Source: Lineus longissimus (taxonomy: Eukaryota > Nemertea > Pilidiophora > Heteronemertea > Lineidae). Taken from it: a DNA stretch of 64,000 nt. Made by a program: the position numbers and the translations under genes. Location of the stretch: the NCBI RefSeq assembly GCF_910592395.1, contig NC_088312.1:12772001-12836000 (forward strand), read 5' to 3'. Below the pieces are notes generated by a model, which was not told the DNA's origin, ran no database searches, and saw only the letters and a list, made by a program, of their open reading frames with translations. Positions 69 through 62,051 of the stretch are shown here, one piece after another (position 1 is the stretch's first letter; each line of letters starts with the position of its first letter).

Positions 69-222
69 TGTATAGTACCCCCAGGTATATGGCACGGCTT
101 AACCCGCCGGCCATGAGGGAATTCCTTTATGGCCCAGTGGTTGGCGCGTTGGCCCCAGAGTGGAAGTTAAGCAACGTTGAGCGCGGTCAACCTTTGGATC
201 GGTGACCGGCGCGTACAATACA
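69..222 (+). mobile_element. Solo LTR of a 5S-like miniature LTR retrotransposon (TRIM)
   Basis: A 154-bp segment begins TGTATAGTACCCCC and ends GTACAATACA, so it has TG...CA termini. It is flanked by a perfect 5-bp direct repeat TACCC (64-68 and 223-227). The same sequence forms both terminal repeats of the complete elements at 22351-22770 and 60025-60440, so this copy is a solo LTR. Its 3' half reads GAAGTTAAGCAACGTTGAG ... TTTGGATCGGTGACCGG, which matches the box A and box C arrangement of the 5S rRNA internal promoter. The 5' half does not look like 5S rRNA. No protein is encoded. Confidence 0.88.
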
Positions 223-1127: not shown

Positions 1128-3620
1128 ATGGCACTGGTTGTTCTTTATTTGCAACGGTTTTTGGGCCTTGTAATTACGTCCCGAGGTAAGTGCGATCGGA
1201 GCGTTTGCTGGTTTTTTATCGAGGAATGCCATTTAGGAGAATGTCGGGTGGACATTGTGATTGTGATTATTGTGATTATTTCAACATGGAATTAACCCAT
1301 ACAGGCCAATCTGTCAATGAAGAGATATTCACGCTTCTATACTTTTGAAATAATAGACTTCCGGAAAAATCTGGACAACTGCTGCACATCTGCTTATCGG
1401 ACTTTGCCAAAATGTCAAGTTTGCACCGTCCCTTATGAATTTAAACAATGAAAATAAAGATGATTTTGCAGCGGAATTCCTTCGTTTACCACGGTAATCT
1501 ATTTATTGACAACAAAGCCACTACAGCTAAAAAACAAACCCAAAACAAGCTCAAGAAACGTAGCGTACAGACGACCATAGTTCGGACAAAACTATCGGTT
1601 CATGTTTAAAAGTATATAGCTTTGATGTCAGCAGCAGGTATATTTGAAAGTAAAAATAGCTAAATCACTGCTTCTTCGCCAATAAATGCTCATAATGACC
1701 TACACCATTCCATTCAACAGGTGCCTTTTATCCTGCCCCAATCGCTTTCCTGCCAATGAACAAAATCACCAGAGAAAAGGATGTTTCGGGAAATGGTAAC
1801 CACGCTATATTCAGCGACGTCACACTTACCCAAGGTCCAAATGGAGAAACAAATTACGCGTACGAACTAAAAGGAACCGTTTCTTCTCACATTACGATTA
1901 AGCATACAGAAGCACTGGACATTGGATTGAAGGGGACACTGACAATTGCTGCTTTCATTAGACCTAAACGTCTTCCCAGGGCCCCTATTTTAGAATTTAA
2001 AACTGGCGGGGCCGCACGAACTCTCCATATTTGGATCATCGACGGTTTGATGTACTTTGCGGACCGCGCATACTTATTAAGACCTACTACGTTTCAAAGT
2101 ATGAGACCTATACCTAACAAGTGGCAGTTTTTCGCAGTTTCATACAACAAGGTCACTCAAAATGTTATTTGGTTTCTTGATAGCAAAAGTGCTGTAAGGA
2201 ACTGTGGTGTTTCCACTAGAGTCAACACGAATTCCGATATCATTATCGGAAAATCGGGCGGAGAATCATTCAAAGGTGGCTTCGGCTGTTTGATGCTATT
2301 CAATGTGGCTTTGAGAGTTGTTGACATGAAACGGGCCAGAGATTATTGCCTGGCCAGATCAGGTGAGTAAACGTATTTTAGGCTGCAGTAGTCATTTTCT
2401 CGGTGACGGGGCCAACGCCTCCCCTCTCCTGAAGTCACCAACATGTCATCCATGCCAGATTATCTCAAGAGCCTTTTGCCGCCCAAACAAAAAGTTAGCT
2501 CTCCTTTCACGAGAGGCGGCATAAGGGTAAGACAAGGCAGGGGCGGTGCGATTATGTTGGCTCATAATATCACACAGTGTACAAGCGAGCGTGGCAATAT
2601 CTCCCGGAAGAAGAGTCCATTGATCACATTCCTTTTTTACGAAAGGGTATTTCGGCATTTTTTTTCTATCGGTTATACTCCGTCGGCATTAAAATGTGCA
2701 CTTGTCCACCCTATACAACAAAGAAATGGGCCATTTGAATTCACCACCTGATAGCATAACAGGCTATTCTTATGACGCGCTTCTACACAGTGTATAAGTA
2801 CCTCCTAGGAATATCCAATGATATATGGCTGGCGCGAGTGGACAAAACTCAGAATTATGCCACGGCATAAATCGGAATTGTGGTGCACCCTAAGTCGACC
2901 AATCAAAACATCGGATCGCGTGAATTAAGCCGCGGCAGAATTCAGAATAATGCCACGGCATGAATAGGAATTGTGGTGTTGCATAATTAGACCAATCAGA
3001 AAGTGGCAATTGTTTCTTTATGGTGCGACATAAATCGCACTTCCGTCCACAATTCCTATTTATGCCGCGGCATAATTCACGAGATCCGAGGTTCTGATTG
3101 GTTGATTTGTGGTGCACCACAATTCCGATTTACTTCCGTCCTCAATAAATGACACTTCCGTCCAGATTTCCTATTTATGCCCTGGCATAATTCACGAGAT
3201 CCGAGGTTTTGATTGGTTGATTTATGCCGCACCACAATTCCGATTAATGCCGTGGCTTAATTCTGAATTCTGTCCACTCGCGCCAGCCATAATGATCATG
3301 TGCGAAGTTGTGATCACACGCAGCCGCCGTGATCATTAAGATTTTCTGATGTTTGTTCTTCGACAACGATAGATGGTGTGCGGTATATTCTGTACAACAC
3401 TGAAGGGAGAATACCAGACGGGAAAATACTCATCGAGAACCATACGGCAGATGAACTCGAATGCCTTACTGTTTGCAGCGTGGTAGTTAGCTGCATATCC
3501 ATCTCCTTTTCCTGGACTAGCAAAATATGCCTACTATCGAAAACAAACTTCAGGGAGGTTCCGATTGCACTAGAAGCGGATGTAGGGAGCTCTGTCTATT
3601 TGCGCGAGGCCAGAGTTTAA
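1128..3620 (+). CDS. Secreted LamG-PAN protein, copy A (3 exons)
   Basis: Exons are 1128-1185, 1721-2362 and 3373-3620, joined at AG|GT sites with both introns in phase 1. They total 948 bp and encode 315 aa. Exon 1 is a signal peptide (MALVVLYLQRFLGLVITSR). Exon 2 is a laminin-G/ConA-like jelly-roll domain: DVSGNGNHA near its start, WQFFAVSYN in the middle and GGFGCLMLFNVAL near the end. Exon 3 is a cysteine-rich PAN/apple-like domain with DELECLTVC and KICLL. ATG 1128 is chosen because copy B has an in-frame stop just upstream of the same ATG. The product is probably extracellular and binds carbohydrate or protein; its ligand is unknown. A 468-bp MITE sits in intron 2. The third acceptor (CGATAG) is weak but shared with copy B. 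Confidence 0.75.
2823..3290. mobile_element. MITE in intron 2 of LamG-PAN copy A
   Basis: The ends are inverted repeats (ATGGCTGGCGCGAGTGGACA on the left and its near-complement on the right), continuing imperfectly inward for about 60 bp with repeated ATGCCGCGGCATAA-type palindromes. AATGAT lies on both sides (2817-2822 and 3291-3296). Sibling units carry the uninterrupted site at 15687-15692 and 17027-17032. No coding capacity is seen. The superfamily is not assigned. Confidence 0.8.
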
Positions 3621-9093: not shown

Positions 9094-9770
9094 CATTGTA
9101 TCAAAGGCTCAAGATCGTGAATGATTTGTCTTGTTCTCGTGGTTGACATACCTGTACAAGGTATCCAGCAAGAGGCCGACATAATCACCTCTCTGAAAGT
9201 TTTCTGAAGTGGAGAAGCGTTCTGGGTACAGATCCTGGTCAGTATAGGTAACCGCTTTGGAACGACTCGCCAATATCCTATATCTTCCTGGTGATAGTTG
9301 AGTGGCAGGGGCAGTGTGAGTATTTCGAAAAGCTGCTACTTTTATCGCTTTCTCAAAGGGATCATCTCATGCAACGTGGTTTTGCCACGGGATGATCATT
9401 TTGTTGCTCTGTTTCACCACAGTTACAGGTGCATTAGACTCGTTTTATTCTCCTCTTCAAGTTACACTCACGGATAAGCGCGTATCGTGTTTTTTTAAAG
9501 TGGCACAAGTAACATTGAACATGCTCTTCTTCAGTAAACCACCAGTTGGTCCTTACTATTCTCCATCCCACAAATGCTCTTTCCGAATATGCAGTGGAGA
9601 GCGACCATTATCCGGGGTTCATCATGATCACGTCGATAGTAGCCGGCCACATCGTCCTACGGACACTGCAACGAACATTCAATCATTAACGTCTTGTATA
9701 CCAACCAATGACATGGACAGGTTAAATACCCCAGTACGGATAAGGAGGGAATGTTACATACGGCTAAGTA

Positions 9771-10799
9771 CAGTGGAGGGTGCTACCAAAGTCATCCTTT
9801 CTGAACAGCGAAGGGTGCAACCAAAGTCATTCTTTCTGAACAGCGGAGGGTGCAACCAAAGTCATCCTTTCTGAACAGTGGAGGGTGCAACCAAAGTCAT
9901 CCTTTCTGAACAGCGGAGGGTGCAACCAAATTCATCCTTTCTGAACAGTGGAGGGTGCAACCAAAGTCATCCTTTCTGAACATCGGAGGGTGCAACCAAA
10001 GTCATCCTTTCTGAACAGCGGAGGGTGTAACCAAAGTCATCCTTTCTGAACAGCGGAGGGTGTAACCAAAGTCATCCTTTCTGAACAGCGGAGGGTGCAA
10101 CCAAAGTCATCCTTTCTGAACAGCGAAGGGTGCAACCAACGTCATCCTTTCTGAACAGCGGAGGGTGCAACCAAAGTCATTCTTTCTGAACAGCGGAGGG
10201 CGCAACCAAAGTCATCCTTTCTGAACAGCGGAGGGTGCAACCAAAGTCATCCTTGCTGAACAGCGAAGGGTACAACCAAAGTCATCCTTTCTGAACAGCG
10301 GAGGGTGCAACCAAAGTCATCCTTTCTGAACAGCGAAGGGTACAACCAAAGTCATCCTTTCTGAACAGCGGAGGGTGCAACCAAAGTCATCCTCTCTGAA
10401 CAGCGAAGGGTGTAACCAAAGTCATCCTTTCTGAACAGCGGAGGGTGCAACCAAATTCATCCTTTCTGAACAGTGGAGGGTGCTACCAAAGTCATCCTTT
10501 CTGAACAGCGAAGGGTGCAACCAAAGTCATTCTTTCTGAACAGCGGAGGGTGCAACCAAGGTCATCCTTTCTGAACAGTGGAGGGTGCAACCAAAGTCAT
10601 CCTTTCTGAACAGCGGAGGGTGCAACCAAATTCATCCTTTCTGAACAGTGGAGGGTGCAACCAAAGTCATCCTTTCTGAACAGTGGAGGGTGCAACCAAA
10701 TTATCCTTTCTGAACAGCGAAGGGTGCAACCAAAGTCATCCTTTCTGAACAGCGGAGGGTGCAACCAAAGTCATTCTTTTCGAATGGCGGAGGGTGCAG
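9771..10799. repeat. 35-bp minisatellite, about 29 copies
   Basis: The unit CAGCGGAGGGTGCAACCAAA + GTCATCCTTTCTGAA is 35 bp and is tandemly repeated over about 1.03 kb. Variants include CAGTGG, CAGCGA and CATCGG starts, TGTAACC and TGCTACC, and AATTCATCC. The order of variants beginning at 9771 recurs at 10471, exactly 700 bp (20 units) later, for about 210 bp with one mismatch. Since 35 is not a multiple of 3, the open frames across it are not coding. Confidence 0.95.
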
Positions 10800-13982: not shown

Positions 13983-16016
13983 ATGGCACTGGTTGTTCTT
14001 TATTTACAACGGTTTTTGGGCCTAGTAATTACGTCCCTAGGTAAGTGCGATCGGAGCGTTTGCCGTATTTTTATCGAGGAATGTCACTTTAGGAGTTGTC
14101 GGGAGGACCAAAGAGTTTAGCCTTGTGATTATTTCAACATGGAATTAACCCATACAGGCCAATCTGTCAATGAAGAGATATTCACGCTTCTATACTTTCA
14201 AAATAATAGACTTCCGAAAATATCTGGACAAATGTTGCACCTCTGCTTATCGGACTTTGCCAAAATGTCAAGTTTGCACCGTCCCTTATTAATTAAAACA
14301 ATGAAAATAAAGATGATTTTGCAGCGGAATTCCTTCGTTTACCACGGTAATCTATTTATTGAAAGCAAAGCCACTACAGCTAAAAACTGAACAAACCCAA
14401 AACAAGCTCAAGAATCGTAGTGCACAGACGACCATAGTTCGGACAAAACTATCGGTTCATGTTTAAAAGTATATAGCTTTGATGTCAGCAGCAGGTATTT
14501 TTGAAAGTAAAAATCGCCAAACCACTGCTTCTTCGTCAATAAATGCTCATAATGACCTACACCATTCCATTCAACAGGTGCCTTTCATCCTGCCCCAATC
14601 GCTTTCCTGCCAATGAACAAAATCACCAGACAAAAAGATGTATCGGGCAACAGTAACCACGCTATATTCAGCAACGTCACACTTACCCAAGGTCCAAATG
14701 GAGAAACAAATTACGCGTACGAACTAAAAGGAGCCGTTTCTTCTTACATTACGATTAAGCAAACAGCAACACTGGACATTGGATTGAAGGGGACACTGAC
14801 AATTGCTGCTTTCATTAGACCTGAACGTTTTCCCAGGGCCCCTATTTTAGAATTTAAAACTGGCGGGGCCACACGAACTCTCCATATTTGGATCATCGAC
14901 GGGCTGATGTACTTTGGTGTCGTTGCAAACATAGGTCCGACTACGTTTCAAAGTATCAGACCAATACCTAACAAATGGCAGTTTTTTGCAGTTTCATACA
15001 ACGAGGTCACTCAAAATGTTATTTGGTTTCTTGACAGGAAAAGTGCTGTGAGGAACTGTGGTGTTTCCACTACGGTCTACACGAATTCCGATATCATTAT
15101 CGGAAAATCGGACAGAGAATCATTCAAAGGTGGCTTCGGTTGTTTGATGCTATTCAATGTGGCTTTGAGGGTTGTTGACATGAAACGGGCCAGAGGTTAT
15201 TGCCTGGCCAGATTTGGTGAGTAAACATACATGCTTTCAGTGCTGTAGTAGTCTTTTTCTCGGTGACACGGCCAACGCCTCCCCTCTCCTGAAGTCGCCA
15301 AAATAGTATTATCTATGCCAGATTATCTGATGAGCCTTTTGCCGCCCAACAAAAAGTTAGCTACCCTTTCACGACAGGCGGCATAAGCGTAAGACAAGGC
15401 AGGGGCGGTGCGATTCTGTTGGTCCATAATATGACACAGTGTACAAACGAGCGTTGCTATATCGTCCCAGAATAAGAATCCTTGATCACATTCTTTTGTT
15501 ACGAAAGGGTATTTCGATGCGAATCGGCTATTTTTCAATCGGTTATACTCCGTCGGCATTATAATGTGCACTTGTCCACCCTATACAACAAAGAAATGGG
15601 CCATTTCAATTCACTACCTGAAAGCATGGCAGGCTATTCGTATGACGCACTTGTAGACAGTGTATTAGTACCGCCTAGGAATATCCAATGATCATGTGCG
15701 AAGTTATGTTGACACGCTGCCGCCGTGATCATTAAGATTTTCTTATGTTTGTTCTACGACAACGATAGATGGTGTGCGGTATATTCTGTACAACACTGCA
15801 GGGAGAATACCAGACGGGCAAAGACTCATCGAGAACCATACGGCAGATGAACTCGAATGCCTTACTGTTTGCAGCGTGGTAGTTAGCTGCATATCCATCT
15901 CCTTTTCCATGACTAACAAAATATGTCTGCTATCGAAAACAAACTTCAGGGAGGTTCCAATTGCCCTAGAAGCCGATGCAGGGAGCTCTATCTATTTGCG
16001 CGAGGCCAGAGATTAA
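13983..16016 (+). CDS. Secreted LamG-PAN protein, copy B (3 exons)
   Basis: Exons are 13983-14040, 14578-15216 and 15769-16016, all phase 1. They total 945 bp and encode 314 aa. The organisation is the same as copy A: a signal peptide (MALVVLYLQRFLGLVITSL), a LamG-like exon starting AFHPAPIAFLPMNKITRQ and ending in GYCLARF, and a PAN/apple-like exon ending SIYLREARD. An in-frame TGA upstream of ATG 13983 fixes the start. This copy has no insertions and is the cleanest reference unit. The LamG domain differs from copy A mainly in the loop around 14925 (FGVVANIGPTTF). Confidence 0.78.
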
Positions 16017-18350: not shown

Positions 18351-18972
18351 TCTGTGTACATTTTAATGAATATAGGTTGGTGAAAAAAGTACACCATGGG
18401 TGCTTTAATTCCCACCAAATTTTATATGTGTTTTGAAGAGGCTTTTATTGAAATAATAGTAAAAATTCAAAACATTCCAATACCGATTGCCTGAGAAAAA
18501 ATTGATTAACAGCATTGTCATCAAATCGTCACTCGCGGACTGATATGGGCCAATTAGATACAAGTTCTAAACTGGCCAGTGAGACAATATTTCCTTAAAT
18601 TAATTATCAAAAAGTATTTCCCCGTTATGGCCTGGCTCTGCAGATTAAGAATCCACCAAAGATTGAAGAATAAATCCACTTTCACCCATCACAGTCATGT
18701 ATTTACCACAGCTACACAGTTCAGTACGGACTATACCCGACCCGTTACGAAAAATTGGATACAATTTGACACGTATTAGGAATTTTATACACATTTGTAT
18801 ACATATAACATGTGAAGCACATATATCATGTGTATATACATGGAGATCGGTTCACGTTTAAAAGTATACAGCTTTGATGTTAGCAGCAGGTATTTTTGAA
18901 AGATAAAATAGCCAAATCACTGCTTCTTCGCCAATAAATGCTCATCATGACCTACACCATTCCATTCAACAG

Positions 18973-20586
18973 GCGCCCTTTATCCTGCCCCAATCGCTTT
19001 CCTGCCAATGAACAAAATCACCAGGGAAAAAGATGTGTCGGGCAACAGTAACCACGCTATATTCAGCAACGTCAGACTTACCCAAGGTCCAAATGGAGAA
19101 CAAAATTACGCGTACGAACTAAAAGGAACCGTTTCTTCTAACATTACGATTAGGCATACAGCAGCACTGGACATTGGATTGAATGGCACACTGACAATTG
19201 CTGCTTTCATAAGACCTGAACGTCTTCCCAGGGCCCCTATTTTAGAATTTAAAACTGGCGGGGCCACACGAACTCTCCATATTTGGATCATCGACGGGCT
19301 GATGTACTTTGTCGAGGCAAATATAAGTCCGACTACGATTCAAAGTATCAGACCAATACCTAACAAGTGGCAGTTTTTTGCAGTTTCATACAACAAGGTC
19401 ACTCAAAATGTTATTTGATTTCTTGATAGGAAAAGTGCTGTGAGGAACTGTGGTGTTTCCACTAGGGTCAACACGAATTCCGATATCATTATCGGAAAAT
19501 CGGGCAGAGAATCATTCAAAGGTGGCTTCGGTTGTTTGATGCTATTCAATGTGGCTTTGAGAGTTGTTGACATGAAACTGGCCAGAGATTACTGCCTGGC
19601 CAGATTAGGTGAGTAAACGTATTTCAGTGCTGCAGTAGTAGTCTTTATCTCGGTGACGGGGCCAACGCCTCCCCTCTCCTGGAGTCGCCAAAATATGTCA
19701 TCTATGCCAGATTATCTCAAGAGCCTTTTGCCACCCAAACAAAACGTTAGCTCTCCTTTCACGAGAGGCGGCATAAGTGTAAGACAAGGCAGGGGTGGTG
19801 CGACGCAGTTTATATATCCTGGAAGAAGAATCCATTGATCACATTCTTTTGTTACGAAAGGGTATTTCGATGCGAATCGTCTATTTTTCAATCGGTTATT
19901 CTTCGTCGGTATTTCAATGTGCACTTGCCCACCCAATACAACAAAGAAATGGGCTGTTTCAATTCAATACCTGATAGCATAACAGGCTATTCTCATGACG
20001 CACTTGTACAAAGTGTATTAGTACCTCCTAGGAATATCCAACGATCATGTGCGAAGTTATGTTGACACGCGGCCGCCGTGATGATTAAGATTTTCTTATG
20101 TTTCTTCTTCGATAACTAGATGGTGTACGGTATTTTCTGTACAACACTAAAGGGAGTATACCAGAATGGAAAGGACCCATCGAGAACAATACGGCAGATG
20201 AACTCGAATGCCTTACTGTTTGCAGCGTGGTAGTTAGCTGCATATCCATCTCCTTTTCCATGACTAGCAAAATATGCCTGCTATCGAAAACAAACTTCAG
20301 GGAGTTTCCGATTGCACTAGAAGCCCATGCAGGGAGCTGTGTATGGACAAAGGTATTTGTCTTATTAGTAGGTCGATTTCGCAGCCCTTACGGCAGAGTG
20401 AGGTTTCGCTATCCCGACCCGACAACCAATTTACCAAGAATGACCAATTTGACACTAGAGGCACTGATGTCGTTCGTTACAACGCCTCTAGAACTGGTAA
20501 CTTGCCACCATCTTGAAAAGCAATACCGCGGATGTAGAAAAGGAAAGAATCTTTCTTATTATAATGAGGCTACGCATCACCACTAA
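18973..20586 (+). pseudogene. LamG-PAN copy C, pseudogene
   Basis: The LamG exon (18973-19608) aligns end to end with copies A and B. A tryptophan codon is changed to TGA at 19416-19418, after NKVTQNVI, while the downstream sequence stays in frame up to DYCLARL. The PAN-like exon begins at 20120 and reads on to 20586, because a deletion of about 35 bp relative to A and B removes the usual stop (SCVWTKVF instead of SVYLREA). No signal-peptide exon was found in the upstream 600 bp. The combined evidence indicates a non-functional copy. Confidence 0.7.
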
Positions 20587-21942: not shown

Positions 21943-23057
21943 CCCATCATTGCTCGAACCAGTTGAAGTAAACGTGCCAGCGCCCTGTCCTTTGCACTGG
22001 ATGTGACAGTGTCCCATCATTTGTCGAACCAGTTGGAGTAAACGTGCCAGTGCCCTGTCCTTTACACTGGATGTGACAGTGTCCATCATTTCTCGAACCA
22101 GTTGAAGTAAACGTGCCAGCGCCCTGTCCTTTACACTGGATGTGACAGTGCCCATCATATCTCGAACCAGTTGAAGTAAACGTGCCAGCGCCCTGTCCTT
22201 TACACTCGATGTGACAGTGTCCATCATTTCTCGAACCAGTTGAAGTAAACGTGCCAGCGCCCTGTCCTTTACACTGGATGTGACAGTGCCCATCATTTCT
22301 CGAACCAGTTGAAGTAAACGTGCCAGTGCCCTGTCCTTTACACTGGATGTTGTAGAGTACCCCAGGTATATGGCACGGCTTAACCCGCCGGCCATGAGGG
22401 AATTCCTTTATGGCCCAGTGGTTGGCGCGTTGGCCCCAGAGTGGAAGTTAAGCAACGTTGAGCGCGGTCAACCTTTGGATCGGTGACCGGCGCGTACAAT
22501 ACATCTGGCAGACCTTCCCACGCGATGCGAGCTCTCGATTTGTAGTTCGGTACTGAGACGCATGAAGCGCTAAGTAGGATCGAGGACGATCCATCTCTGT
22601 CCGAAGGGGGGAATGATGTATAGTACCCCCAGGTATATGGCACGGCTTAACCCGCCGGCCATGAGGGAACTCCTTTATGTCCCAGTGGTTGGCGCGTTGG
22701 CCCCAGAGTGGAAGTTAAGCAACGTTGAGCGCGGTCAACCTTTGGATCGGTGACCGGCGCGTACAATACAGATGTGACAGTGTCCATCATTTCTCGAACC
22801 AGTTGAAGTAAACGTGCCTTTCTGTCCTTTACACTGGATGTGACAGTGCCCATCATTTCTCGAACCAGTTGAAGTAAACGTGCCAGTGCCCTGTCCTTTA
22901 CACTGGATGTGACAGTGTCCCATAATTTCTCGAACCAGTTGGAGTAAACATGGCAGTGTCCTGTGCTTTACACTGGATGTGACAGTGTCCCATCATTTCT
23001 CGAACCAGTTTGAGTAAACGTGGCAGTGCCCTGTCCTTTACACTGGATATGACAGTG
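21943..23057. repeat. 69-bp satellite, about 10 copies, split by a TRIM
   Basis: A 69-70 bp unit containing CCATCATTTCTCGAACCAGT, TGAAGTAAACGTGCCAGCGC and CCTGTCCTTTACACTGGATG repeats from 21943 to 22350 and again from 22771 to about 23057. The gap is exactly the miniature LTR element at 22351-22770. Because 69 is a multiple of three, the minus strand has a 180-codon repeating frame, which is best explained by the period. Confidence 0.9.
22351..22770 (+). mobile_element. Complete 5S-like TRIM retrotransposon (420 bp)
   Basis: The 5' LTR is 22351-22503 and the 3' LTR 22617-22770, with an internal region of 113 bp. The LTRs begin TGTAGAG/TGTATAG and end CAATACA, and differ at only a handful of positions. 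GATGT is duplicated at both sides (22346-22350 and 22771-22775). The internal region starts TC then TGGCAGACCTTCCC, a possible primer-binding site, and ends CCGAAGGGGGGAATGA, a polypurine tract. Each LTR carries the 5S-rRNA-like box A/box C block. There is no coding capacity, so replication would need proteins from another element. It interrupts a unit of the 69-bp satellite. Confidence 0.92.
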
Positions 23058-26900: not shown

Positions 26901-29821
26901 TGTTTATGCTGAATTATGGTTGTATTTGAATACGATGCAATAGATGATCACACTAAACCTGCACATGGCAAAGACGTACCACACGCGTATGGATATACTG
27001 ATATCCATACACGGTCCTAGAGGGCACCACCTTACAGTACATTCCGTGTGACTGCTAGCAGATTCGACCACAGTCAGTCGCGGTTGGCATTCAAATGTGT
27101 GAAATACCATGCAAATGAACGATTTAAATCGATGTAGCCTAATCTGTAATACTATGATCACATGCGGCGACGAAAATCGCTCGTTTGGGGTGGTCTTTGC
27201 AGGCGCTTCGACAATCGGTGATCGCTGCAACCTGCGGTCAATATCAAACCCGACGGTTGCTGATTTTACCGCAGACGAGAAATCTTATTGTCACACATAG
27301 CAACGATTATAATCGCAGATCGCAGTGATCTTAATCGTTGGCTTTCGGAATTCAAATAGGACATACATTTGATCAGCGCACGTAGACCTATGTCATGTTT
27401 AAACTCATAAAATTACGTTGCCTGTAACCTGCATCTGGGACAGCATGGAATGGGCTAAGGGCGTACAGTCGCCGCTACGTGGCGCTGGCTGTCACTAGGG
27501 TATGCCTGACTTTGTCAAATGAAGTAAGCGACACGACGAGTATTCCCATTACCAGCAATGCCAGCGGCACTCTTGGTTTGGAATAGAAGGAGCGTCTATC
27601 ATCTGAAAGCTCAACCCACTGCAGGCTTCGATTGAGGTTCATGGACATTGATGGATGTCGTGGAGCAAATTTGATGTTGTTACATTTATCATCGATGATG
27701 TATTGTGATATCAATTGGTCATCGATGTATTAAATGATCATTACCTAATTATACAGGGTATTTCATTTGTAACCAAGAGTTACTGCAATCGATATTTGTA
27801 GCGTGCAATGACCCCTGGGTAATCAAGGTTGCCCAGGCCCCTCCGAAATCCCAATATGGTCATATCACATCAGGTTTCAGTGAGGGGATAACACCATGTG
27901 ATCATTGTTTTTTTGCAAGGGGTGTAATTTCTGTCGCCATTTGTCAAACTAAGTATTTTTGAGAGACAAAATCTTCCTGAATGATCAACTTCATACGTAG
28001 CTTATGATAAAGATCAAGAAACGTGGCGTAAAAACGACCATAGTTCGGACAAAACTATCGAATTCAGCAGCAGGTTTTAAAAATAAAAATAGACAAAGTC
28101 ACTGCTTCTTCGCCTGTAAATGCTCATCGTGACCTATGCCATTCCATTAAAGCTACCGTTAGTACTGCCCCTGTCGCTTTCCTGCCAATGAACAAAATCA
28201 CCAGAGAAAAAGATGTATCGGGCAACAGTAATCACGCTATATTGAGCAACGTCAGACTCACCCAAGGTCCAAATGGAGAACAAAATAACGCGTACGAACT
28301 AAAAGGAGCCGTTTCTTCTTACATTACGATTAAGCATACAGCAACACTGGACATTGGATTGAAGGGGACACTGACAATTGGTGCTTTCATAAGACCTGAA
28401 CGTCTTCCTAGTGCCCCTATTATAGGTTTTAAAACTGGCTACGCCCCACGAACTCTTCATATTTCGATCATTGAAGGGCATATTAACTTTGGTGACGATG
28501 ACGCAGACGACATAGCTCCGACGTGTCCAAGTATCAGATCAATTATACCTAACCAGTGGCAGTTTTTTGCAGTTTCATACAATACGATCACTCCATACGT
28601 TATTTGGTTTCTTGATAGCCAAAGTACTGTGAGGAACTGTGGGGTTTCCACGAGAGTCAACAGGAATACCGATATCATTATCGGAAAATTGGGCAAAAAA
28701 TCATTCAAAGGTGGCTTCGGCTGTTTTATGCTATTCAACGTGACTTTGAGAGATGTTGACATGAAATGGGCCAGAGAGTATTGCCTGACCAGATCAGGTG
28801 AGTAAACATACATGTATTTCAGTGCTGTAATAGTCTTTTACCCGGTGAGACCGCCAACGCCTCCCCACTCCAGAAGTCACCAAAATATGTCATCTGTATA
28901 TCAGATTGTCCAAAGGGCCTTTTGCCGCCAAAGCAAAAAGTTAGCTACAATCCTTTCACGAGAGGCATCATAAGTGTAAGACAAGGCAGGGGCGGTGCGA
29001 TTATGTTGGCTCATATTACATAGTGTACAAGCGAGCGTGGCTATAGAATAGTCCATCGATCACATTCTTTTGTTCCGAAAGGGTATTTCGATGCAAATTG
29101 GCAATGTTTTTAATGCACTATACTCCGTCGGTATTAAACTGTGCACTTGTCCACCCTATACAACAAAGAATTGTGCCATTGGAATTTACTACTTGTCAGT
29201 ATAGCCGGTGTAGAAGTTTAAAATGTCCTAGGATAAAATGTCCGGGAACAAAGGATTCTATTATGCGCTTCAATCTCTGAGCTATTGATGGTCAGGGTCT
29301 CTATAGAACCATATTGTAGAATACAATAGGGCCGGACACTTTTTCCAGGGGGGGCACTTTTTACTTTTACACCGGCTCTTCTTATGACGCGCTTGTACAG
29401 TGTATTAGTACCTCCTAGGAAAATCCAATGATCATGTGCTAATGGTCACCCGCGGCCGCCGTGATCATTAAGGTTTTATTATGATTATTAAGGTTCTTGG
29501 AAAACGACAGATGGTGTACGGTATGTTCTGTATAATACTGAAATGAGAATACCAGACGGAAAAAGACTCATCGAGAACCATACGGCAGATGAACTCGAAT
29601 GCCTTACTGTTTGCAGCGTGGTAGTTAGCTGCATATCCATCTCCTTTTCCATGACTAGCAAAGTATGCCTGCTATCGAAAACAAACTTCAGGGAGGTTCC
29701 GATTGCACTAGAAGCCGATGCGGGGAGCTGTGTATGGACAAAGGTATTTGTATTATCAGTGAATGTAGGTAAAATAGGTACAGGTAAATTAGGTACGGGT
29801 AAAACAGGTACAGTAAAATAG
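23974..29821 (+). CDS. Secreted LamG-PAN protein, copy D (3 exons)
   Basis: Exons are 23974-24031 (signal peptide MAQVPLSLLRFFSLVITSI), 28153-28797 (LamG-like) and 29511-29821 (PAN-like), all phase 1. They total 1014 bp and encode 337 aa. The LamG acceptor is CATTAAAG|CT, different from CAACAG|GT in A-C but in the same phase. Intron 1 is 4.1 kb and filled with small mobile elements. The C terminus is unusual: the deletion shared with copy C removes the normal stop. The frame then enters the iteron arm of the element at 29760 and ends with lysine/glycine repeats (GKIGTGKLGTGKTGTVK). The last about 20 residues are transposon-derived if this copy is expressed. Confidence 0.6.
24747..24868. mobile_element. 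Small 122-bp inverted-repeat element
   Basis: GGCAGACTGTCCGCTATGG (24747 on) and its complement at 24846-24868 form 23-bp ends with one mismatch. The size is 122 bp. No coding sequence and no clear target-site duplication is seen. It is probably a MITE or a foldback. Confidence 0.6.
25983..26225. mobile_element. 243-bp MITE-like element
   Basis: The left end AAAGGAGTATGCCGTTCGAA and right end ...GAACGGCGTATGCCTTT are imperfect inverted repeats of about 17 bp. The right subterminal part is AT-rich. It lies in intron 1 of LamG-PAN copy D. The target-site duplication is unclear. Confidence 0.55.
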
Positions 29822-47212: not shown

Positions 47213-47468
47213 ACATGGCCCGAACTTATAAAAGGTGTTTTTCTCTTAGACAAGTCTAAATCGCCTAGACAAGTCTTAATCTATCGTTTAGCATAAACAG
47301 CTACTACAGAAGGATGTTTAGTTTGGACGTGTCTAAAACTGTCATCCAAGATAGACTAGGGTGTCTAAATAACAAAGGAATTGAAAAACATACCTGGGGG
47401 CTTGTTTTGCAGCTGTTTAAGCTTATGATTCATACATGTAGAGGAGGTTACGGCGTGTGGTCGGCAGA

Positions 47469-49951
47469 ATGGATGCTCTTGCTATACTTGAATTTGCACA
47501 AGACGAACGAGAGGAGCATGAAAATGAAATTCAGAGAAGACGCATGAGGGTGTTCAGGGACAGAGAAAATCCTTTAGAGGAACTGTCAGACCCGAAGTTC
47601 TTGAGGCGCTTTCGAATTTCTAAAGAAACATTTCGATGGCTACTCGATCTCATCAGTGAAGACCTACGTCGGCCAACTCGGCGAAACCAAGCACTTACAC
47701 CACTTTTGCAACTGGCGATTGCTCTTCGTTTTTATGCAAATGGTGCATTTCAACATGTCACTGGAGATACCTGTGGTGTGTCACAATGGGCCTGCGGCGA
47801 AGCTATCCATCGAGTCACAAGGGAAATATGTGATAGAAAGGGAAATTTTATAACTTTTCCCGAAACCCAGGCGGAACGACTAAGGGTGCAGCAAGGATTC
47901 CGCGATATTGCGCAATTCCCAGGTGTAATTGGTGCTCTCGATGGTTCGCACGTTCCCATCGCAAACCCAAGAGGAATTAATGCCCAGCGTTTCATGAATC
48001 GAAAGGGTTACTATAGCCTGAACTGCCAACTTGTTTGTGACCATGAGTTATGCTTCACCAATGTCGTCTCCAGATGGTACGGCTCTGCGCACGATTCCAG
48101 AATCTTTGAGGAATCACGACTTTGCCAAAGATTCAGAGCAGGAGAGCTCCAGGGTATTTTGCTGGGTGACCCAGCATACACGTGCACCAGATATATGTTG
48201 ACTCCGGTTCGTGAACCAAGAAACGTTGCAGAGCGGAATTACATTCAAGCCCAAAGGAGGACAAGAGGGGTCATCGAGAGAGCGTTTGGGGTTTGGAAAA
48301 GACGATTCCAAGCTGTTGGTAGGGGAAATACCCTTCGATGTTCAGTAAGTAAATCCAGGAGATTTAAAAAATTTCACCCCACCACTCACCTATATTTGAC
48401 ATCGACCTCATGCTTACAAGCCTCACCTAACCTGAACCACACCATAGGACTCCGATTGGCCTACATTGTTGAAAAAACGGTACCGTCTGAATACTAAAAA
48501 ATGGTGCTGGGTTCAACACCAAAATTTTGTATTCATTAAGGACCTATACCGTTTTTTGGTGTTGACTTCCTCAACACCATAATTTGGTACTGGGGCGATA
48601 CTATAATTTGGTACTGAGCTGGTACCATTAAATGGTATTGAATCTGTCAGTACCAAAAACTGGTATTGACATTTGAGTGAATACAAATAAATGGTATTCA
48701 GAATTTCCGGTACCATTTTGGAATACCAAATTACGATATTCAGACCTGGTCAATACAATTTTTTGGTGCCGGGCTAATACCGTTTTTTTACAGTGTAATG
48801 GCTTCCAACAGAATGGTGAACCCTGAATTTTTATCGGTGTACCCCCATTTCGCCTATACCCATTTCGCCTACACCCATTTCGCCTATTACCCATTTCGCC
48901 TACCCCCATTTCGCCTACCCCCATTTCGCCTACCCCCATTTCGCCTATTCACCATTTCGCCTACACCCATTTCGCCTACTCACCATTACGCCTACTCACC
49001 ATTTCGCCTACTAAAAAGGAAAAGAGTGGTGTGCGCTGGACATTTGAACAATTTTACGAATTGTTGAGCTTGGTTTTTTTCCTTCATATTATAGCATATT
49101 TCCCAGTTAAACTTTACCATACTTTATCATTCCAACCCGGCCTCTTGAGACAAGACCACCATTGATTTTTTAAGCCTTTTTCCAGTTAAATTGTCACAGT
49201 TTGACCGCCTTGCATCAAATAATGCTTCGGGTTGTGAATCTGAAATTTGGATATGACATTCCAGACAGTCAGGCGAGTAAATGGTGAAATTTTATTAAAA
49301 CTGGTGGTTGTCCACAAATGTTTTTTCTTCAAATTGGACAAATTTGAGAGACCATGATATTTCCACTGTTTTCAGCCAAATCATGACCCTACTCATGACC
49401 CTACTCAGTTCGTCTGATAGTATTTAGTTGGTATTTAGTTGGATAAACTGCATATTTCTAAAAGCGTTACAAAATTCTGGCACCAATAGACATTTCAAAT
49501 TAGACTAGAAGGCTGAAACATCTTTTGAATTTGAAGTCACTATCATAAAACATTTGAAATGATGTAGGCAAAATGGGTAATAGGCGAAATGGTGAATAGG
49601 CGAAATGGGTGTAGGCGAAACGGTGAGTAGGCGAAATGGGTGTAGGCGAAACGGTGAGTAGGCGAAATGGTGAGTAGGCGAAACGGGTAAATTTTGTAGG
49701 CGAAATGGGTGTAGGCGAAATGGGTGTAGGCGAAATGGGGATGAACCTTTTTATCTGCTTGGATACCAGTTCGCGATCGGTTATACTAACTGGCATGATT
49801 TTTTTAGTTGCAGCACAATATGGCCATAATCATCGCTACAGCATGTCTCCACACCTTGGCCATTCGCAGAAACGATCCACTTCCAGATGATTATCATGGT
49901 GATGCCAATACTGATGCGCCGAGAGCCAGCAGAGGAATCGCATCATCATGA
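47469..49951 (+). CDS. Harbinger (HARBI1-like) transposase, probably frameshifted near the C terminus
   Basis: Exon 1 is 47469-48344 (292 aa) and exon 2 is 49808-49951, joined in phase 0 (TTCA|GTAAGT ... TTTAG|TTG). The N-terminal helix-turn-helix-like part (RFRISKETFRWLLDL) precedes a DDE nuclease domain with D158 (GALDGSHV), D234 (LLGDPAY) and E270 (VIERAFGVWKRRF). Exon 2 gives MAIIIATACLHTLAIRRND, typical of the family's end. The frame stops at 49951. One base over, an open frame EESHHHEANLRGNLF continues to 50008 and resembles the normal C-terminal tail, so a one-base shift probably truncates the protein. The DDE residues are all present, so the truncation affects only the last about 25 residues. 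Confidence 0.82.
48498..48797. mobile_element. Small iteron-rich element in the transposase intron
   Basis: ATGGTGCTGGGTTCAACACC at the left and GGTGCCGGGCTAATACCG at the right are roughly inverted. Between them are many GGTACTG/CAGTACC and TGGTATTG words in both orientations. It is about 300 bp. The borders are approximate and no target-site duplication was fixed. Confidence 0.5.
48836..49747. mobile_element. Iteron-armed MITE (912 bp) nested in Harbinger, 8-bp TSD
   Basis: TTTTTATC is duplicated at 48828-48835 and 49748-49755. The left arm begins GGTGTACCCCCATTTCGCC and consists of about a dozen CCATTTCGCCTACACC-like repeats to about 49015. The right arm (49566-49747) is the same array inverted and ends GGGGATGAACC. 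The core is non-coding; near 49170 it contains a CCAGTTAAATTG word also found at 55545 and 63590. It lies inside the intron of the transposase gene. Confidence 0.82.
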
Positions 49952-50061: not shown

Positions 50062-51246
50062 CTACAGGTCAATGCGGAGTTTTCGAATTTTTTCCTTGTA
50101 GTAGTCCATCTTCGCCTCGTAGGCACGCTTCTTAAATTTTGCTGCCTCCTGCTGCAAATTAAGCAAACTCATTTTTTGTTCATGTTCATCTTTCAGGTAG
50201 GCAAGTGCTTGGTCGGTCTTCTTTAAGACAGGAGATTCATCGGACATGGTAGCCCTCTTCTCAAGGCTGGAAAGAAGAATGCAAAGTAATTTAGCAACGC
50301 GTGTGGTCAGGAACTCCAAAGTGTTGGAGGTCCATAGTGTAAAGTGATTAGATTTGACTGATACATCGTTGTATTCCATTCACTGCTTACCTTTTACTAG
50401 AACGTGGTTTCCTGGGGGTTGCGGCAGAGCTGTTGTGAAGATCGTAGTTACCTCCAGTATATTCAACTTCCCCATCCACATCTTTCAGGAATGTTTCCGC
50501 GGCTGGAGTGCAGCTGAAAAATAATGAAGGATATCTTTTATTTTTATAACGACTGTGGAGAATGGCGGGCCTAATAACAACCCAATAGAATGTCATAATA
50601 AAGTATCATGATAACTAATCACTTTTCGCATTGTTATTTTATTTCTTTTCTATTTCGGAAAGTAGTTTATTTTTCAAGGGATGAGTTGATGTCATTTGGA
50701 TAGTATTTCAGTATAAGTAAATCTCACTTCGTTTTTGCTGCATATACCTTTGCCTGTTTTTTATGAAAGTTAATTCAAACAGATGACCAATATTTACCTT
50801 CCCAGATCGTCAGCGCTTGTTGATGGTAAGGGTTCATCAATGACGTCATCAGCAACTACAGGAACGGAAGGGGCATCGTCATCCACAGGATTATGTAGTT
50901 GTTGCAGATCCCCAGGTGTGATATTCAGAATGGCAAGGATTTCGTCATCCACCTCCCCTACAGTGGCCGTCCCCCCTCCAGTTTTACCAAGGTCGATCTT
51001 TTTCTCACGGGCTACGGCCTTGGCCTTGATCTTCATTCGTCTCCAAAGGTCTTTCAGGTCCTGTGGACGTTCGGGAAATAAGGCATTCATTTCCCCTGCT
51101 ATCTTCTCCCATGCTGCCTGTTTTCTCTTGTTTGCCTGGACATCCGTTCGCTTGTCTTCAACGATATCTTCATGAGCTCTTACCAGCTCAATTAGAGCTC
51201 TCCGCTGGTCCGGAGTGAAATTCTCACTTCTCTTTCTTCCCAACAT
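50062..51246 (-). CDS. Myb/SANT-like DNA-binding protein of Harbinger (3 exons)
   Basis: Minus-strand exons are 51246-50798, 50513-50391 and 50266-50062, with both introns in phase 2. They total 777 bp and encode 258 aa. The first about 90 residues form a Myb/SANT-like trihelix domain (ENFTPDQRRALIELVRAHED ... AAWEKIAGEMNALF ... LKDLWRRMKIKAKAV). An acidic linker follows, then a basic patch (TPRKPRSSKR), and the last exon is coiled-coil-like (KTDQALAYLKDEHEQKMSLL). Harbinger elements carry such a partner that helps the transposase reach the nucleus and bind DNA; this role is inferred from the family and from its position inside the element's inverted repeats. Confidence 0.85.
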
Positions 51247-51552
51247 TGCCGAGCGATGTACGTCACTTTACGGCCTATGGGCTGAATGCTGTGCAAAGGA
51301 GTTCAGTTAAGGTCAACCCCATTCACCAAGTATTACATGATCGTCTGAACAAAGGAAATGCGATCTATGCTTCACATTGCATCACCAGCTGGACTAGTCT
51401 AGCTGGACAGACGTCCTTCTGTGGTTCAAATTTCCGATGAACACCAGTGTTTTGTAGGACATGTCTACCTCTAGTCTTACAAATGTTTAGGCTTAAACAG
51501 GTCCAAGTTAAACAAAAGAAAAACACGCTTTATAAGTTCGGCCCGTGCGTTT

Positions 51553-52878: not shown

Positions 52879-55800
52879 TTATTTGCGACAGCATATTCTT
52901 TTTAGTACATTTTTAGTATCTTCTCTAAATCTGCGCCCCCCTCCTAAAAGGTATAAGTAAAAATTCAATGCGTAATTAAACGCAAAGAGAGCATCAAAGA
53001 CTTGAATTTCAATCGTCATCCGAAGCTTCCAATACATTGTATCCTTGTACATGGCTTTGATTTCTGGTATGTCTAACAGGAAATAGTGTAGTCTATACGG
53101 AATTGAAGTCAGGATGTAAGCAACGCTGACCGAAATCAGCATTTTTGTAAGAGCCTTAGACTCCTGTGTGGAACTTGTGTCTTTCTGGTCTTTTCCTCGG
53201 CTTACATTTAGTTGGGCACGTTTCGTTGACGCACGGTTAACAGTTATAATGATGGCTACATTGCAAATTAGAATGATGGCAAATGGAATAACGGTACCTA
53301 AAGCGAGCTGGAATCCAGTGGCCAGGGCCTCAATTTCTGGCGCTTCCGGGAAATGAGGCACTATTATAGCCAAATCTGAAAGAACGAAAATAGATAAATT
53401 TAATTCTGCATACAATAATTTTTCAGAGGTCGCAAAACCTAACATTCTCATAATTTTTTAGTCAATATCTAACCATAGTGATGTGCAGTCGAACCTCGGG
53501 TGCATTCGAGTCGCGTGTAAGGTTTCCGCGTCCTGGGTTTCGCAGCGGACAATGCGATGCCTATTCACCCCTTGTTCGGGATAGACGCTAATTAACATCG
53601 AACAGACGGCGATCACATTACAGATCCACGCCATATTGATACACAAACCTCTTATATCGCCTGTGTACAACTTGTTAGTAAGATGGGGAATACATTTACG
53701 AGCACTAGCGTAGGCCTACATGCTTCACGCTGGTCAGCCAATTTGGCATTCTGTGGAAAAATGGAGGTGTTCTTTTCTGTAGTTTACCGTCTTCGTCCGA
53801 CATCATTTCATACAGAAAGAAAATATTGAGGTTAAGAATCACGACCACGGCCGAAGTGACCAGTATGCTTTTCTTCGCCCTCGATGCTGTGCAGAGCTGC
53901 TGTGCCTTAATGGGGAATGTCACGGCCATCAGTCTATCAACGGAGAACCCACTCAGTAGCAATGATGACAGCATCCCGCCCGTGTAGCCTACATACCAGA
54001 TACATCTGCAATTAGAAAGATCACATTTACGGTGTTACCGAGTGGTCTTAATTTGACAACCAAGGACCGTCAGCTTGGTCTTAATTCCATAAGCATTTAA
54101 TCTAATCGCTTTGTTTCACCTTAAAGAATCTAAGAGTTTGACCCGCGCAACACAGGTTGTTTTAAGTGTAGCATAACTTAGCATAGTATCGAATGGGAGG
54201 TCCCAAACGTATTTCAGGGGCCCGCCAATAGTTGTCCCGTATGTTCTATGTGCCGGGCTCATCAACAGGAAATGAAGAGGTTCATTTTCTCCGCCCGAGA
54301 AAATGTAAAAAGTTGGCCGAATCATTGGTCGTGCTAAATCCCCTTTAAGTTGTATCCTCGAATGAAGGATCAGCCACACCTGTAAAATCGTATTCCTCCG
54401 TCGCTGATACGACTTTTGGAGACATTCTACATATTTGTATAAACCTCTTCTTCTTTGACCCTCCCCCCCAGACATGCTCACGCGCGCACACCTTATAATT
54501 CTGATTCTAATGCATGAGCGATATCGCGTACAAATAAAATGATTTTGTCCATGATCGGACACATTGATAACGTGTGCGAGGGGAGGAGCATACGAGTGAC
54601 CCTGGTTTCGAGGAGGCTGGTAATGACGGCCATACTTGATATCGGATGAGGCCCAAAATCATCTCTCTCCAGTTCCTCTCCTTCGCACTATAGAATATTC
54701 AAGGTTCAATTGGATATTGGATCTCAAGGTTCGATGCGCGAATTAAGTTTGAAGTATTTCGAACTTCGCATTTCTTATTTCGAATGATCCTGCTGGGCTT
54801 TCGTAATAATGCGTTGTGGTGTTGATCTCTTCGATCAGTGACATTAGAGGTCCAGAAATCCGGTGCAAGAAAGAGAGATAATATGACGTCTACAAAATTA
54901 GTGTACAAGGTATTCTTGAGTTTGATATAAAATATCTCGTAACTTGGACTTGTGAGAAGAGGCTCTGTCTCCCCTTAATTTCTTGAATCAATTGTGACGA
55001 TAGACTTTGATGAGTCCGACTTGCCTTTGCTTAATCAGTCGGGAACTTTAGGGCTCCAAATTTCGGGCAGAAGATGCACCGGTAGATCAGGTCTTGTGAG
55101 TTGAAGCCGTCAAACGCGAAATCTAGTAACATTCAACTAGCTTCATTTCAGCAATCTGGTACTCTCTGTGGTCTCGTATCATGTTCCTGTGAGGAGCCCA
55201 GAAAAACCCTTTCCTTACCCCTGATCAAGGCCAAAACTGCTTTGAAAATTTTTTTCAGAATATGACGGAATGTTACTGCCAAAAATCGGATAATTCATAC
55301 TGCAAATGACGTCAATAGGTCGCGCTGCTGTGAGAATCGGCATTAACACCATGCGTACCTGATAAATTGCACCACTGAACGAACCACTGCAGTTCGAATT
55401 TCTATCACTTTAAACGCAGACAACTTTGGCCGTAAGGCCGCACTATTGTATCATCAAAGAGGTAGCTACCACGCAATAGGGCCCGGGTTCGATTCTTTGG
55501 AGAACCCATGATCAAGGTCATGCACTTGTAATAAACTTTTAAGCCATTTTTCATTTAAATTGGCACAATCCACACGCTCACAACGTTTTACCAGACTTAA
55601 TCTGCGAGGAACGCTTTCGGGAGTACTACGGGAGGACTACTTTTTGGGGTGTATGGTTCAAACCCACTGACAGGAACGCATGTGCATGTGTAGCGATCTG
55701 GAGACTTCAAACCCACCCAGTGCATGAGGGAATTCTCATTTTTTAAAGGGAATATTTTCCTCAACCGCGACCGGATCTTTAATTACAGGTGGGTGACCAG

Positions 55801-60024: not shown

Positions 60025-60440
60025 TGTATAGTACCCCCAGGTATATGGCACGGCTTAACCCGCCGGCTATGAGGGAATTCCTTTATGTCCCAGTGGTTGG
60101 CGCGTTGGCCCCAGAGTGGAAGTTAAGCAACGTCGAGCGTGGTCAACCTTTCGGTGACCGGCGCATACAATACATCTGGCAGACCTTCCCACGCGATGCG
60201 AGCTCTGAATTTGTAGTTCGGTACTGAGACGCATGAAGCGCTAAGTAGGATCGCGGACGATTCATCTCTGTCCGAAGGGGGAATGATGTATAGTACCCCC
60301 AGGTATTTGGCACGGCTTAACCCGCCGGCCATGAGGGAATTCCTTCATGGCCCAGTGGTTGGCGCGTTGGCCCCAGAGTGGAAGTTAAGCAACGTTGAGC
60401 GCGGTCAACCTTTGGATCGGTGACCGGCGCGTATAATACA
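60025..60440 (+). mobile_element. Complete 5S-like TRIM retrotransposon (416 bp)
   Basis: The 5' LTR is 60025-60174 (150 bp, lacking GGAT in the 5S-like box C) and the 3' LTR is 60287-60440 (154 bp). The internal region is 112 bp and ends CCGAAGGGGGAATGA. The 5-bp duplication GCGGA lies at 60020-60024 and 60441-60445. The paralogous site at about 52239-52270 reads GGACATAAGTAGCGGAAACA without the element, so the pre-insertion state is visible. The internal region begins TC then TGGCAGACC, a possible primer-binding site. No protein is encoded. Confidence 0.94.
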
Positions 60441-60939: not shown

Positions 60940-62051
60940 TTAGCACATTTTTAGTATCTTCTCTAAATCTGCGCCCCCCCCCCCTCCTAAAAGGTATAAG
61001 AAAAAATTCAATGCGTAATTAAACGCAAAGAGAGCATCAAAGACTTGACTTTCAATCGTCATCCGAAGCTTCCAATACATTGTATCCTTGTACATGGCTT
61101 TGATTTCTGGGGTGTCCAGCAGGAAATAATGTAATCTATACGGTATTGAAGTCAGGATGTAAGCAACGCTGACCGAAATCAGCATTTTTGTAAGAGCCTT
61201 AGACTCCTGTGTGGAACTTGTGTCTTTCTGGTCTTTTCCTCGGCTTACATTTAGTTGGGCACGTTTCGTTGACGCACGGTTAACAGTTATAATGATGGCT
61301 ACATTGCAAATTAGAATGATGGCAAATGGAATAACGGTACCAAATGCGAGCTGAAATCCAGTGGCCAGGGCCTCAATTTCTGGCGCTTCCGGAAAATGAG
61401 GTACAATTAATGCCAAATCTGAAAAGCAGAAAATAGATAAATTGAACTCTGCATATAAAATTTTTCAGAGATCGCAAAACCTAACATTATTGTTATTTTA
61501 TTAGGTAAGATCTAATTACAGTGATGTTCAGTCGAACCTCGGGTGCACTCGAGTCGCTCGTAAGGTTTCGTGGTCAGGAGTTTCGCCGCGGTCAGTGCGA
61601 TAACTATACAATCCTTTTTCGGGGATCGACGCTAATTTATATCGAACTGACGGCGATCACATAACTGGCCCACATCATATTGACACGAAATCTCTGATAT
61701 CGCTAGTGTACTACTTGCTAGTAAGATGGGGAATGCATTTCCGAGCACTAGCGTAGATACTTCACGCTTGTCAGCCAATTTTGCATTTTGTGAAAAATTG
61801 AGGTAATGTGCCATATTCCTTTCTGTAGTTTACCGTCTTCGTCCGACATCATTTCATACACGAAGAAAATATTGAGGTTAAGAACGACGACCACGGCCGA
61901 AGTGACCAGTATGCTTTTCTTCGCCCTCGATGCTGTGCAAAGCTGCTGTGCCTTCATGGGGAATGCCACGGCCACAAGTCTATCAACAGAGAACCCACTC
62001 AGTAGCAATGATGACAGCATCCCGCCCGTGTAGCCTACATACCAGATACAT
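60940..62051 (-). pseudogene. Duplicated GPCR 3, 5'-incomplete and frameshifted
   Basis: Exons 62051-61834 (same 218-bp length as GPCR 2 exon 2) and 61418-60940 match GPCR 2 closely (SVDRLVAVAFPMKAQ, NYALNFFLYLLGG). A run of 11 C at 60973-60983 replaces the 6 C of the parent, shifting the frame after TM7 so the tail becomes GADLEKILKMC. The block homologous to copy 1 ends before any exon encoding TM1-TM2, so no start is visible in the window. It is most likely a duplicated fragment. A real 5' exon could only lie beyond 64000, and the homopolymer could be an assembly error. Confidence 0.7.

What the first reader, a model, noticed from the sequence alone, without database searches (positions are those of the whole stretch)
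22351..22770. Cassandra-like TRIM in an animal: miniature LTR retrotransposon with a 5S rRNA promoter in its LTR
The sequence shows two LTRs of ~154 bp with TG...CA ends, a polypurine tract, a possible primer-binding site, a perfect 5-bp TSD (GATGT) and no coding capacity. The LTR's 3' half matches the 5S rRNA box A/intermediate/box C layout (AAGTTAAGCAACGT ... TTGGATCGGTGACCG). Plant Cassandra elements are TRIMs with 5S sequence in the LTR. An animal counterpart would be an independent origin or a very old family, transcribed possibly by RNA polymerase III. Novelty is my inference; I cannot search the literature.
Basis: partly seen in the sequence, partly recalled or inferred. Interest (0 to 1): 0.92.

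Follow-up and report, generated by a model that had tools for sequence, protein, structure and literature searches.

The report
Ajax TRIM retrotransposon in ribbon worm
This is a real, tiny non-coding jumping element whose repeated ends carry a piece of a 5S ribosomal RNA gene, but it very probably belongs to a family (Ajax) already described in the bootlace worm in 2024.

Summary
Window 22351-22770 is a miniature LTR retrotransposon (TRIM): LTRs of 153 and 154 bp (TG...CA), a 113-bp non-coding interior with a purine tract, and a perfect 5-bp duplication (GATGT), inserted in a 69-bp satellite. A second full copy (60025-60440) and a solo LTR (69-222) each have their own 5-bp duplication. The LTR carries the promoter part of 5S rRNA: 42 of 61 positions match the host 5S gene in one register (10-17 in 14 others), and 0 of 20,000 shuffles reach the local score. 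Rfam does not detect it.

The novelty claim fails. Assembly size and six compared contig sizes match Lineus longissimus. Kojima 2024 (PMC10886601) described Ajax from that species: 5S promoter fragment in the LTR, 5-bp duplications, Ajax-1_LiLo 421 bp long, which equals 154+113+154. The published consensus letters could not be seen, so membership rests on species, length, structure and compatible copy number. Pol III transcription and the mobilising partner remain unproven.

The parts
22346..22350 (+). left target site duplication GATGT
22351..22503 (+). 5' LTR, 153 bp, TG...CA
   Evidence: BLAST
22444..22489 (+). 5S rRNA promoter-like segment (box A, intermediate element, box C) in the 5' LTR, matching host 5S positions 48-93
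   Evidence: shuffle test done on the solo LTR: 0 of 20,000 reach the score
22504..22616 (+). non-coding interior, 113 bp
22504..22514 (+). putative primer-binding site TCTGGCAGACC; TGGCAG would pair with CUGCCA, recalled as the end of some tRNA-Leu
   Evidence: sequence; Kojima reports a tRNA-Leu PBS for Ajax; pairing with a host tRNA not tested, because the searches got no answer
22603..22613 (+). polypurine tract GAAGGGGGGAA
22617..22770 (+). 3' LTR, 154 bp, TG...CA
22711..22756 (+). 5S promoter-like segment in the 3' LTR
22771..22775 (+). right target site duplication GATGT
60025..60440 (+). second full-length copy (LTR 150 bp, interior 112 bp, LTR 154 bp), TSD GCGGA; its 5' LTR has a 4-bp net deletion at the start of box C
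69..222 (+). solo LTR, 154 bp, TSD TACCC

Best explanation
The element is a copy of Ajax-1_LiLo, a non-autonomous TRIM of the ribbon worm Lineus longissimus. The 5S-derived internal promoter in each LTR probably recruits the 5S transcription factors and RNA polymerase III, with a start near LTR position 48, about 50 bp upstream of box A. The RNA is then reverse transcribed from a tRNA primer (tRNA-Leu according to the 2024 paper) and the purine tract by the enzymes of an autonomous LTR retrotransposon, whose integrase makes the 5-bp target duplication. Shown here: anatomy, target duplications, many copies, 5S homology, host. Published: the family and its tRNA-Leu primer. Inferred: Pol III transcription, start site, trans-mobilisation.
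For: Host: G000 has 391,118,348 bases, and the six contigs whose sizes I saw (C4, C5, C6, C12, C13, C15) match the published chromosomes of the same number to within 0.02 Mb. Length 154+113+154 = 421 bp equals published Ajax-1_LiLo. Published Ajax has 5-bp TSDs and a 5S fragment limited to box A, IE and box C; both are found here. Copy number is compatible: 499 LTR and 137 interior candidates in the first look, only 40 of each scored, against a published 1114 LTRs and 151 interiors. Among the 38 Ajax loci examined, 18 of 40 matched clusters were parsed with both ends and 11 of those 18 carry a perfect 5-bp TSD.
Against: The Ajax consensus itself was not seen (no supplement look-ups allowed), so letter-for-letter identity is untested. 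G000 has 30 contigs, the published assembly 32 scaffolds. Seven of the 18 end-complete clusters lack a perfect TSD: three (L030, L033, L034) differ at one base, two (L005, L007) are parsing pieces next to interior sequence, two are unexplained (L004, L024). Inside the family the 5S-like segment is not more conserved than the rest of the LTR: it differs at 3.9% against 1.2% for LTR 1-93, so current constraint on the promoter is not shown. Rfam finds no 5S. No RNA evidence was available. The copies in the window hold no TTTT, so where Pol III would stop is open.
Confidence: 0.75

Rival explanations
1. A SINE3 dimer or tandem 5S-derived SINE rather than an LTR retrotransposon.
For: SINE3 families also carry 5S promoters, and Kojima derives the Ajax 5S segment from a SINE3.
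Against: TG...CA ends, exact 5-bp TSDs in three of three insertions in the window, a solo LTR with its own TSD, and a purine tract before the 3' LTR.
Confidence: 0.02
2. An ordinary Pol II-driven TRIM (Ajax or not) in which the 5S match is a passive relic.
For: The 5S segment is not the most conserved part of the LTR among copies; one LTR of copy B has lost the start of box C yet belongs to an inserted element.
Against: All three promoter blocks sit in one register with 5S spacing, while the first 45 positions of 5S are gone (10 of 45 match); no TATAAA or AATAAA in the three copies of the window. The damaged LTR may have mutated after insertion.
Confidence: 0.2
3. A separate, undescribed TRIM family of L. 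longissimus that merely resembles Ajax.
For: The published consensus letters could not be read here.
Against: Same species, same 421-bp length, same TSD length, same 5S segment, compatible copy number.
Confidence: 0.03

Closest known systems
Ajax-1_LiLo (Kojima 2024, PMC10886601)
   Same: Host species, 421-bp total length, 5S promoter fragment in the LTR, 5-bp TSDs, purine tract, many LTRs per interior
   Different: No difference found, but the published letters were not available for comparison
Ajax-1_NGe (Notospermus geniculatus)
   Same: Same group and architecture
   Different: 434 bp, other host
Cassandra (land plants)
   Same: TRIM with 5S promoter in the LTR; tandem arrays reported there (abstract and passages seen) and found here
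   Different: 565-860 bp, 5S with terminators, reported from land plants; published as an independent origin
Helenus
   Same: TRIM with a Pol III-type promoter in the LTR, present also in nemerteans
   Different: tRNA-derived promoter; 4-bp TSDs in animals
SINE3
   Same: 5S-derived promoter
   Different: Mobilised by non-LTR retrotransposons; no LTRs, PBS or purine tract (and general knowledge)

Membership tests
TRIM | Two LTRs, total under 1 kb, no coding capacity | tested here: met
   420 bp, LTRs 153/154 bp, longest stop-free stretch 88 codons antisense
TRIM | Fixed-length TSD | tested here: met
   5 bp in 3 of 3 insertions in the window; 11 of 18 end-complete clusters in the loci examined
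TRIM | PBS and PPT | tested here: inconclusive
   PPT present. PBS candidate TCTGGCAGACC; pairing to a host tRNA not tested, searches unanswered
Ajax | 5S promoter fragment (box A, IE, box C only) in the LTR | tested here: met
Ajax | 5-bp TSD | tested here: met
Ajax | Host is one of the nemerteans it was described from | tested here: met
   Assembly size and six contig sizes match Lineus longissimus
Ajax | Sequence match to the Ajax-1_LiLo consensus | not testable with these tools
Ajax | tRNA-Leu primer | tested here: inconclusive
   TGGCAG fits a recalled tRNA-Leu end; no host tRNA could be fetched
Cassandra | Plant lineage; 5S with terminator in the LTR | tested here: not met
   Animal host; first 45 positions of 5S absent (10 of 45); no TTTT in the element

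The most novel reading that the evidence does not exclude
Because the element holds no standard Pol III terminator (no TTTT), RNA polymerase III may read through the 3' LTR, and such long RNAs may feed the tandem LTR-interior-LTR-interior-LTR arrays seen here, two of which sit between perfect 5-bp TSDs and so look as if they were integrated as arrays. Separately, the 5S segment of one LTR (5' LTR of the 60025 copy; 1 of 46 LTR rows) is identical to host 5S over 25 bases, which leaves open an exchange with, or a direct origin from, host 5S genes instead of a SINE3.
Probability: 0.15. Interest if true: 0.4.

Novelty: already known. Interest (0 to 1): 0.15.

Why it matters
Ajax is the animal counterpart of plant Cassandra and, as published, shows that LTR elements captured a 5S promoter more than once. 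This window adds clean insertion evidence (a copy inside a satellite with a restored empty site), a comparison with the host's own 5S, and tandem arrays. It does not add a new kind of element.

Tried and rejected
Rfam/Infernal for 5S: no match; I attribute this to the truncated 5S core. A first comparison with host 5S used the wrong strand and gave no similarity; the corrected strand is. The box rows and the upstream count printed used a register off by one; one search gives the right ones. Autonomous partner: the PBS stretch occurs in the window only in the two full Ajax copies and the interior matches nothing else in the window at E<=0.1; a genome-wide partner search was not done. Host identification by protein search failed (none of 7132 candidates; one unnamed metagenome protein); assembly size settled it. 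ARAGORN found no tRNA in the window. Literature: searches. Searches returned no paper on Ajax other than Kojima 2024; no search for the bare name was made.

The family assignment alone I still hold at 0.95.

Full report
Observation. The element at 22351-22770 is as described: two LTRs (153 and 154 bp, 97.4% identical, TG...CA), a 113-bp interior ending near a purine tract, and a GATGT duplication on both sides. It sits in a 69-bp tandem satellite (21944-22350 and 22771-23057), and joining the flanks gives back a satellite unit. Two more insertions lie in the window: a full copy at 60025-60440 with TSD GCGGA, and a solo LTR at 69-222 with TSD TACCC. A 48-bp stretch holding the 5S-like core occurs without mismatch in four of the five LTRs of the window; no match occurred in 100 shuffles of the window.

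5S homology. The host's own 5S gene was found in tandem arrays (47 matches scored out of 11,363 first-look candidates, all 47 at 110.4 bits; the 6 copies fetched are identical). The solo LTR aligns with it at 42 of 61 positions in one register, against 10-17 in the 14 other registers tried (54-61 positions each). Box A is 14/15, IE 5/6 and box C 15/18, while the first 45 positions of 5S are not recognisable (10 of 45). None of 20,000 dinucleotide shuffles reaches the local score of 49 (maximum 34), and the best of 813 tiles elsewhere in the window scores 26. The 5' LTR of the 60025 copy matches host 5S over 25 of 25 bases; it is the only one of 46 LTR rows with that exact 25-mer. Rfam's 5S model does not fire, which I attribute to the missing 5S ends and fold.

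Host. G000 has 391,118,348 bases in 30 contigs. Contigs C4, C5, C6, C12, C13 and C15 (25.59, 23.93, 21.66, 17.97, 16.85, 16.29 Mb) match chromosomes 4, 5, 6, 12, 13 and 15 of Lineus longissimus (25.60, 23.94, 21.66, 17.98, 16.85, 16.29 Mb; PMC8593623, passages and genome report section read). The published assembly has 32 scaffolds, two more than G000 has contigs.

Family. Kojima 2024 (PMC10886601; read: abstract, introduction, methods, results and discussion up to the conclusions, figure legends and tables, and found passages) describes Ajax from this species and from Notospermus geniculatus. Its LTR holds a 5S fragment limited to box A, IE and box C; TSDs are 5 bp; the primer is tRNA-Leu; Ajax-1_LiLo is 421 bp with 1114 LTRs and 151 interiors. 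The window's 154+113+154 equals 421. The supplement with the consensus could not be opened. Searches returned no other paper on Ajax. Of the two Cassandra papers (PMC7215508, PMC10853983) I saw abstracts or passages only.

Genome copies. Of 38 Ajax loci examined (8, 30; each search scored only its 40 best candidates), 40 matched clusters remain after removing those with identical flanks. 18 were parsed with both ends, and 11 of these 18 have a perfect 5-bp TSD; three more differ at one base, two are parsing pieces, two are unexplained. Three clusters (L018, L023, L034) are LTR-interior-LTR-interior-LTR arrays, two with perfect outer TSDs and the third with one mismatch. In the Kojima main text tandem arrays are mentioned for LTR-11_DR only. 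Five loci on contig C14 show the same five bases at each parsed edge, which may mean co-amplification with a larger repeat; wider flanks were not compared. Among 41 distinct LTRs the 5S-like segment varies more (3.9%) than LTR 1-93 (1.2%); this gives no support for current constraint, and the copies were picked for similarity to the query.

Mechanism. By analogy with 5S genes the start would lie at about LTR position 48 (inference from register). The three copies of the window hold no TTTT and 1 of 41 full LTRs parsed from the loci has one, so a transcript could cross the whole element; where it ends is unknown. Reverse transcription from the interior's first bases and the purine tract, and integration with a 5-bp stagger, imply the enzymes of an unidentified autonomous LTR retrotransposon.

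Verdict. A correct and sharp observation of an element that very probably belongs to a family already described. Low interest as a discovery; the open points are Pol III transcription, the partner element and the tandem arrays.

Noticed in passing
L018, L023, L034: Tandem Ajax arrays (LTR-interior-LTR-interior-LTR), two between perfect 5-bp TSDs.
   Followed up: partly
L016, L017, L038, L039, L040 (contig C14): Ajax copies at separate C14 places with the same five bases at each parsed edge, perhaps carried along by a larger repeat.
   Followed up: no
window 1699-2370, 14556-15224, 18951-19418, 28044-28805: Repeated gene or exon family with similar translations (by eye); of the three scanned, two match Laminin_G_3, one of them below the curated cut-off.
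   Followed up: no
window 47442-48497 and 50794-51267: DDE_Tnp_4 transposase and a nearby Myb/SANT protein, as in a Harbinger-type DNA transposon (the Harbinger label is recalled).
   Followed up: no
window 9770-10798: 35-bp tandem array, about 29 copies.
   Followed up: no
window 52879-53457 and 60940-61464: Two GPCR-like frames with similar translations (by eye), perhaps duplicates; the first matches 7tm_1.
   Followed up: no
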